Origin: Syntrophomonadaceae bacterium
GTDB taxonomy: Bacteria; Bacillota; Syntrophomonadia; Syntrophomonadales; Syntrophomonadaceae
DNA: 36,097 nucleotides
NCBI GenBank assembly: GCA_014360155.1
Contig: JACIYB010000006.1
Span: forward strand, 1-36,097
Reading direction: 5' to 3'
The notes beneath the pieces are model-generated. The model worked only from the letters and a program-made list of their open reading frames with translations, searched no databases and had not been told where the DNA came from. Both the position numbers and the translations under genes were made by a program. Shown here in pieces: positions 91-34,851 of the stretch. How positions within the stretch are numbered: position 1 is the stretch's first letter; every line of letters begins with the position of its first letter.

Positions 91-150
91 TCTATATTAA
101 ATTAGCCCCTTTCTAACCACCTCTATCCTCCAGCGCTGACCTTAAGCGTT

Positions 151-203
151 CAGTCCCAAAAGTCCATAAATGATGGAAATGGGAGCGGGGCTGAAGGCTT
201 AAG
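151..203 (+). repeat. Dispersed intergenic element, copy A
   Basis: This copy shares the core CATAA...TGGAAATG...GGGG.TGAAGGCTT with copy C at 21674-21742 and, more weakly, with copy B at 15218-15276. TCCAT/ATGGA can form a small hairpin inside an outer TCCC/GGGA pair. Like the other copies it lies on the plus strand just past the 3' end of a minus-strand gene. The alignment was made by eye and the function is unknown. Confidence 0.45.
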
Positions 204-228
204 AATTTATTTTCGCATTAAAAGGCTC

Positions 229-9451: not shown

Positions 9452-9553
9452 CTCTTATCTGCCAGGTTCTCCCTGCAGGAATTGGCACCATACCCTCGCC
9501 TGGGCGGTTGCCGGGTTTCATCGGGCCAGTCCCTCCACCTCTCTGGATAAGAG
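9452..9553 (-). promoter_or_regulatory. SAM-I riboswitch (S box)
   Basis: Read on the minus strand, the closing stem CTCTTATC/GATAAGAG surrounds the canonical S-box core: AGAGAGGTGGAGGGACTGGCCC, then GATGAAACCCGGCAACC, and GGTGCCAATTCCTGCAG further on. All of the highly conserved internal loops are recognisable. A terminator follows at 9413-9440. SAM binding should stop transcription of the metH-HcyBio-NIL-UPF0280-cysK operon. Confidence 0.95.
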
Positions 9554-15195: not shown

Positions 15196-15217
15196 AAATT
15201 TAAATGTTAATAATAAT

Positions 15218-15276
15218 ACCCATGTCCATAGGGCATAACCGTTGATGGGAATAGGAAAGAGGATGAAGTTATTTGA
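15218..15276 (+). repeat. Dispersed intergenic element, copy B
   Basis: ACCCATG.CC..AGGGCATAACC.TTG is shared with copy C, followed by a similar GGATGAAG. A hairpin ATGTCC-ATA-GGGCAT (one G-T pair) matches the perfect hairpin of copy C. It lies past the 3' end of the minus-strand LysE gene, in the same orientation as the other copies. Confidence 0.5.
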
Positions 15277-15342
15277 TTATTAATTTAACTGTTAAACCCC
15301 GCTTTAACTTGCTTAAGTAAAGTGCTGCTCAGGAATTCACCA

Positions 15343-21654: not shown

Positions 21655-21673
21655 AAACAATAAAGAACATATT

Positions 21674-21742
21674 AACCCCCATGCCCTCAGGGCATAACCA
21701 TTGGAAATGTGTAAGGGGATGAAGGCTTGAGCCTTCATCCCC
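21674..21742 (+). repeat. Dispersed intergenic element, copy C, with strong hairpin
   Basis: The copy contains a perfect hairpin ATGCCC-TCA-GGGCAT, then AACCATTGGAAATGTGTAAG, then a perfect 12-bp stem GGGGATGAAGGC/GCCTTCATCCCC with a TTGA loop (21715-21742). It lies between the convergent ends of glnA and accA and could act as a terminator for either, although only short A/T runs follow. Its left part is shared with copies A and B. Confidence 0.55.
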
Positions 21743-21824
21743 AAAAAGTCATTTTTATAAAAAGGATGTTGGAAAAATTCAGCCAACAGCCTTTCTATTA
21801 TGCCAAAAACAGCCAATATGTGCT

Positions 21825-29651: not shown

Positions 29652-29764
29652 AAATTAATACTAACCTCCTCAGGCTCTCAGGACTCAGTCATTTACGGAG
29701 ACAGGGGAAAACAGCTTTATCCCCCTGCGCTAACCCCAACCCTTTACCCCCAAGGAGTTTTTAT

Positions 29765-29802
29765 ATGATTAACCCCCGCTAAAATCATGCCTTAGCGGGG
29801 GT
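29765..29802 (-). terminator. Terminator of groESL
   Basis: ACCCCCGCTAA and TTAGCGGGGGT form a perfect 11-bp stem around a 9-nt loop. On the minus strand it is followed by TAATCATATAAAAA, a weak U-tract. It lies about 60 bp past the groEL stop. Confidence 0.6.
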
Positions 29803-34675: not shown

Positions 34676-34713
34676 AATTAAGCCTAAACACACACATTAA
34701 CCCGGCTTAAATT

Positions 34714-34808
34714 AACTCCTTTCCACTGGGAGGCATAACAGTTTCCCATTATACCCTGTCGTTCAACTGCCATAGCATTGAAGCCTTAGGACTGGTTGAA
34801 TCGGAGTT
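34714..34808 (-). promoter_or_regulatory. Probable molybdenum cofactor (Moco) riboswitch
   Basis: Read on the minus strand, AACTCC and GGAGTT close the element, starting with CTCCG and ending with TGCCTCCCAGTGGAAAGGAG, strings I associate with the Moco RNA motif. Inside, GGTATAA/TTATGCC encloses a GGGAAAC loop, and TTCAA-TGC/GCA-TTGAA forms a second stem. It lies between a good promoter and a moa operon, the standard setting for this motif. The assignment is from memory of the consensus, not from a model search. Confidence 0.72.
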
Positions 34809-34851
34809 TTCCTCGATATTCCTTTTTTTTACGGACGGCTACACAGTTTAT

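What the first reader, a model, noticed from the sequence alone, without database searches (positions are those of the whole stretch)
21674..21742. Three-copy dispersed structured element (151-203, 15218-15276, 21674-21742)
Three intergenic sites share the series CCCATG.CC...GGGCATAACC.TTGG..AATG....GGGGATGAAGGCTT to different degrees. The small hairpin is kept, with a compensating G-T pair, in copies B and C. All have the same orientation and lie just past the 3' end of a minus-strand gene. This fits a REP/MITE-like family or a small structured 3' RNA and matches no riboswitch I know.
Basis: seen in the sequence. Interest (0 to 1): 0.55.

Follow-up and report, generated by a model that had tools for sequence, protein, structure and literature searches.

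The report
Hairpin-ended mobile repeats in Syntrophomonadaceae
The three similar spots are worn fragments of a small, gene-less DNA element that has copied itself about 80 times around this bacterium's genome and lives in many of its relatives, sometimes in chains of differently filled units that share the same ends; the enzyme that moves it is still unknown.

Summary
Intact form, on the window's minus strand: TTARTACGAAAATA - long stem enclosing a ~150-nt core - TATTTTC - GGTTGTG(GCC..GGC)CATGGGGGG - TTARTA. It has no terminal inverted repeats and no ORF. The stem covaries strongly across genera (14 of 25 pairs changed on both sides; none of 500 shuffles reached this). The right end occurs in 23 of 54 genomes of the family and in none of 9 from other families of the order. 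In a 2,936,195-bp genome, the size I recall for Syntrophomonas wolfei, the same ends flank unrelated inserts in mixed head-to-tail arrays. In G067 a young burst inserted seven times at one point inside another repeat's terminus, with no duplication beyond a shared GTT. I read it as a non-autonomous, PATE-like mobile element, moved in trans by an enzyme that probably recognises a folded single strand; that enzyme was not found. Proximity to gene 3' ends does not generalise (35 same strand, 33 opposite).

The parts
21671..21763 (-). Copy C: internally deleted element: left end 21743-21763, collapsed stem hairpin 21715-21742, right end 21671-21714 with hairpin ATGCCC-TGA-GGGCAT (21681-21695) and the TTAATA core (21670-21675)
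   Evidence: (E=4.4e-11)
15212..15283 (-). Copy B: right-end remnant; hairpin 15222-15236; the 5' part of the element is lost
   Evidence: E=3.7e-4
102..223 (-). Copy A: composite of a left end, a partial right-end module and a second partial left half; same layout as locus L016
   Evidence: (86.5% to L016 over 89 nt)
29660..29772 (-).
   Evidence: E=4.8e-4

Best explanation
The sites are old, partly deleted copies of a non-autonomous mobile element (PATE-like: no terminal inverted repeats, near-terminal hairpin, no target duplication, no gene). SHOWN: (1) about 80 dispersed, mostly intergenic copies in this genome, with relatives in 23 of 54 family genomes; (2) a right end of about 50 nt with a covarying hairpin, a left end reduced to TTARTAMGAAAATA, and left and right arms that are complementary and change together between cassette types; (3) a 150-nt core in several genera whose stem covaries; (4) head-to-tail arrays in which units share one TTARTA; (5) insertion between TT and the following bases, without duplication beyond a shared GTT. 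INFERRED: a transposase or site-specific recombinase acting in trans recognises the folded single strand of the right end, joins right end to left end in a circle, and inserts that circle 3' of TT at TTARTA-like sites. Because the right end itself ends in that sequence, new copies stack into arrays. In this genome the family looks inactive: its copies are diverged (about 71-79% identical) and many are collapsed to fused ends, as in copy C.
For: Copy number; full-length alignments and ends; family distribution; same ends with different cargo (in 400 kb of G020, 46 right ends, most of those with a recognised left end having it 51-195 bp upstream); arrays of 211-bp period in G067; seven insertions inside the terminus ...GCGAAAGTT^GAGT of another repeat, against six loci where GAG still follows that terminus uninterrupted; young copies mostly 87-96% identical in G067; stem covariation and right-end hairpin covariation; no gene-orientation bias.
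Against: No mobilising enzyme was identified: no Y1 locus carries the ends, IS110 loci do so only in one chance neighbour, and the presence of Y1 (p=0.064) or IS110 (p=0.78) genes does not track the element well. No orthologous empty site in a sister genome was available; the empty-site argument uses paralogous targets. The left end has no conserved near-terminal palindrome, unlike typical PATEs. Conservation of the 150-nt core across genera is more than a passive passenger would need.
Confidence: 0.75

Rival explanations
1. Integron-like cassette system: the 50-nt right end plus next left end is a folded recombination site (attC-like), and ORF-less cassettes are stacked and shuffled by a tyrosine recombinase.
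For: Minimal left end, structured right end, strand-specific pairing, mixed head-to-tail arrays of different cassettes with one shared site, arms complementary across the junction, GTT at the junction, insertion without duplication.
Against: In own-genome insertions the base before TT is not conserved as G; no conserved R''/R' pair around GTT (inspection); integron integrase not searched.
Confidence: 0.15
2. RNA-mediated copying (SINE-like): the folded strand is an RNA reverse transcribed into new sites.
For: Conserved G-U pairs on one strand; 11 copies in G067 lack the 5' part at different points but keep the 3' end.
Against: Against about 4 copies lacking the 3' part the asymmetry is not significant (p=0.12); 5' truncated copies mostly lack the left half of the target; no reverse transcriptase in G067, rated 100% complete.
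Confidence: 0.06
3. Guide-RNA element: the conserved core is a bridge-RNA-like guide used by an IS110-type enzyme with a TT core.
For: Structured core with variable inner loops; bipartite target and recurrent insertion into another repeat's terminus.
Against: IS110 genes are no commoner in carriers (12/23 against 14/31) and absent from the own genome; the cassettes of G020 lack the core.
Confidence: 0.04
4. Host-selected 3' regulatory RNA or terminator spread by duplication.
For: Covarying stem; copy C has a strong hairpin between convergent glnA and accA.
Against: No orientation bias, high copy number, arrays, insertions into other repeats, no T-run after the hairpin of copy C.
Confidence: 0.03

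Closest known systems
PATEs (palindrome-associated transposable elements), Haloquadratum walsbyi, PMC3119063
   Same: No terminal inverted repeats, near-terminal palindrome, no target duplication, no gene, heterogeneous interiors with conserved ends, core deletions leaving fused ends, frequent nesting in other elements.
   Different: Palindrome conserved at the right end only; no IS605-type relative with these ends found; mixed head-to-tail arrays; complementary left and right arms; a 150-nt covarying core.
MITEs / small bacterial repeats such as RUP, ERIC, CIR (PMC2229807)
   Same: Short, non-coding, intergenic, many copies, structured.
   Different: Most have terminal inverted repeats and target duplications; this one has neither. 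CIR also lacks inverted ends but is unrelated in sequence as far as I know.
REP/BIME elements with RAYT transposases (PMC2817692)
   Same: Hairpin repeats in large numbers, composite arrays.
   Different: Far longer units, direct not alternating orientation, no RAYT carries the ends.
Integron gene cassettes / CALIN (attC arrays)
   Same: Head-to-tail units sharing a folded ~50-nt site, minimal left end, no target duplication.
   Different: No ORFs, dispersed over the chromosome, no conserved R''/R' boxes, no integrase linked.

Membership tests
PATE | No terminal inverted repeats | tested here: met
   Left TTARTACGAAAATAAC and right ...CATGGGGGGTTARTA are not inverted
PATE | No target duplication | tested here: met
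   Seven insertions in one repeat terminus, GTT left and RAGT right, against uninterrupted paralogues; at most 3 bp shared. Paralogous, not orthologous, empty sites
PATE | Near-terminal palindromes at both ends | tested here: not met
   Covarying hairpin at the right end; none conserved at the left end across cassette types
PATE | Ends shared with IS605-type transposons | tested here: not met
   No right end or element in 52 Y1-transposase loci; TnpB-only elements not searched
MITE | Terminal inverted repeats matching a transposon | tested here: not met
REP with RAYT | RAYT gene flanked by the repeat | tested here: not met
   G007 has 24 right ends and no Y1 gene
Integron cassette (attC) | R''/R' boxes (RYYYAAC/GTTRRRY) pairing around the crossover | tested here: not met
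   Inspection of right ends: TACTAAC present only in some types
Integron cassette (attC) | Integron integrase in the genome | not tested
IS110 / bridge RNA | DEDD transposase (PF01548) in carriers | tested here: not met
   12/23 carriers, 14/31 non-carriers; absent in own genome
Non-LTR / group II-type retroelement | Reverse transcriptase available | tested here: not met
   None in G067, which carries the young burst
Known Rfam RNA | Covariance-model match | tested here: not met

The most novel reading that the evidence does not exclude
A recombination system unlike described ones: ORF-less cassettes with a common folded end that are captured, swapped and stacked head to tail across the chromosome, in which one cassette type carries a conserved, covarying RNA-like core that takes part in its own mobility or targeting.
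Probability: 0.2. Interest if true: 0.8.

Novelty: new variant of a known kind. Interest (0 to 1): 0.52.

Why it matters
It is a family-wide, apparently undescribed mobile repeat of syntrophic bacteria. The mixed arrays with one common end and the strongly covarying core suggest that a folded single strand matters for movement. Finding the enzyme would show either a bacterial relative of haloarchaeal PATEs or a chromosome-wide cassette recombination system outside integrons. Young copies in G067 make it testable.

Tried and rejected
SINE-like copying was attractive because of 11 5'-truncated copies, but 11 against 4 is not significant, the left target half is usually missing and G067 has no reverse transcriptase. 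RAYT/Y1: no linked ends, and weak correlation (20/23 against 19/31, p=0.064). IS110: no correlation; one right end 230 bp from an IS110 gene at a contig edge (L346) judged coincidence. Autonomous ORF-bearing versions: two 3-kb left-right spans in G020 hold ordinary chromosomal genes between separate cassettes; others none or spurious. Hammerhead, retron and intron resemblances were considered by eye and dropped. Viral contigs, plasmids and phages: no match. Literature on repeats in this family: nothing found in the held library.

Full report
WHAT WAS CHECKED. The three sites are present as described and lie between genes. Own-genome searches with copy C and then with a fuller copy returned 79 and 49 matching places. 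A covariance model of the full element (R1, 222 positions) found 81 places at E<=0.01. Copies C, B and a fourth window copy D (29660-29772) are among them. Copy A is recognised by the sequence profile and by an 86.5% match to another genomic copy, L016. The finding is therefore not a chance similarity.

ANATOMY. On the window's minus strand the intact own-genome element reads TTARTACGAAAATAACTTCTT - GGGGATGAAGGCTTAAGG...CCTTAAGCCTTCATCCCC (long stem with a ~150-nt interior) - TAACCTATTTTCATCAGTGGTTGTGTCCTGCGGACATGGGGGG - TTARTA. The left-end GAAAATA pairs with TATTTTC near the right end. The window copies are damaged forms. C keeps left end, collapsed stem and right end; B keeps a right end; A and D are composites. 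Similar collapsed forms occur elsewhere (L002, L003, L004, L008, L010).

STRUCTURE IS UNDER CONSTRAINT. An alignment of 24 core sequences from G000, G067, G021, G035, G017, G004, G019 and G033 supports a 25-pair stem. 89.6% of cells are paired, 14 pairs show changes on both sides (shuffled mean 6.1) and 0 of 500 shuffles reach the observed values; slid controls drop to 35-58% paired. On the element strand 65 cells are G-U and 16 are A-C, including two positions where G-U is the common state, which points to this strand as the one that folds. The right-end hairpin also covaries: one position has U-G 9, G-C 7, U-A 4, C-G 1 and G-U 1. Some of this signal could come from shared descent.

DISTRIBUTION. 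R1 hits 22 of 54 family genomes. A 52-nt right-end model (R2) hits 23 of 54, with 90 matches in G020, 84 in G073 and 53 in G034, and none in 9 genomes of other families of the order. Contig lengths identify G067 as Syntrophomonas sp. BL5_bin.17 (283,995 bp contig). G020 is 2,936,195 bp, the size I recall for S. wolfei Goettingen; that identity is not verified here. Exact right-end patterns gave no viral contig, and blastn of one right-end stretch gave no plasmid or phage record.

SAME ENDS, DIFFERENT CARGO. In G034, G020, G076, G077, G005, G075, G031, G001 and G073 the left end and right end enclose unrelated sequences of about 20-320 nt. In G020 at least three cassette types share the ends, and their arms agree within a type (GAAAATA with TATTTTC; GAAAAGTGAG with CTCACTTTTC). 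Types are joined head to tail, with one shared TTAGTA, and one unit is a hybrid of two types. In 400 kb of G020, 46 right ends were found; 27 had a left end in range, nearly all 51-195 bp upstream.

INSERTION. G067 carries a young burst (mostly 87-96% identical) with tandem arrays of 211-bp period. Seven copies sit at the same point inside the terminus of another ~220-bp repeat with inverted ends ACTCAACTTTCGCA...TGCGAAAGTTGAGT: GCGAAAGTT-[ARTACG...GGYT]-RAGT (the right junction of L200 was read). Uninterrupted termini read GCGAAAGTTGAG or a close variant in L141, L144, L147, L149, L150 and L151. Insertion therefore falls between GTT and GAGT with no duplication beyond the shared GTT. In the own genome both ends carry TTARTA. 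Two old copies are shared at orthologous places between species of one genus (L123/L094/L115 and L129/L095), with identity inside the element (88-93%) similar to the flanks, so there is no sign of special host conservation.

NOT A 3' RNA. For 72 own-genome copies the upstream gene is on the same strand in 35 and opposite in 33; the downstream gene 37 and 28; 62 of 72 overlap no ORF. The pattern in the window reflects that most genes there are on the minus strand.

WHO MOVES IT. Unknown. Y1 transposase genes are in 20 of 23 carriers and 19 of 31 non-carriers (p=0.064), but no Y1 locus examined shows the ends. IS110 genes do not correlate. G067 has no reverse transcriptase; the own genome has one single RT gene (L210), which I judge to be of the Abi type. 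The asymmetry of truncations in G067 (11 against 4) is not significant.

COMPARISON. The nearest described kind is the PATE of Haloquadratum (PMC3119063, read): no inverted ends, near-terminal palindromes, no target duplications, heterogeneous interiors, core deletions. Two PATE features were tested and not met (palindrome at both ends; ends shared with an IS605-type element), so it works like a PATE but is not filed as one. It differs from MITEs (PMC2229807) in lacking inverted ends and target duplications.

LIMITS. Own-genome counts depend on model thresholds and a fragmented assembly. No orthologous empty site was obtained.

Noticed in passing
   Followed up: yes
L004 1630-1782; also L006, L013, L019, L020, L026, L055: A second, unrelated ~150-bp MITE in the own genome (GATTTCACTGCTGAAAG...CAGTGGAATC), sometimes inserted within the element described here.
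   Followed up: partly
L147, L150, L151, L152, L153 (G035, G067): A ~220-bp MITE with inverted ends ACTCAACTTTCGCA in Syntrophomonas genomes; its terminus is a recurrent target of the element.
   Followed up: partly
window 9452-9553 (-) and 34700-34818 (-): SAM riboswitch upstream of a metH-like gene and a molybdenum-cofactor riboswitch upstream of moaA (Rfam gathering-level hits).
   Followed up: no
L049 around 1690-1700: The right end GGAGGTTAGTATG supplies a Shine-Dalgarno-like sequence and abuts a start codon; insertion at TTARTATG may be harmless or even activating.
   Followed up: no
L307 2286-2335 (G020): A hybrid cassette with the 5' part of one cassette type and the 3' part of another, suggesting exchange between cassettes.
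   Followed up: no
L123, L094, L115 (G067, G021, G035): An old copy kept at the same place in three species of one genus.
   Followed up: partly
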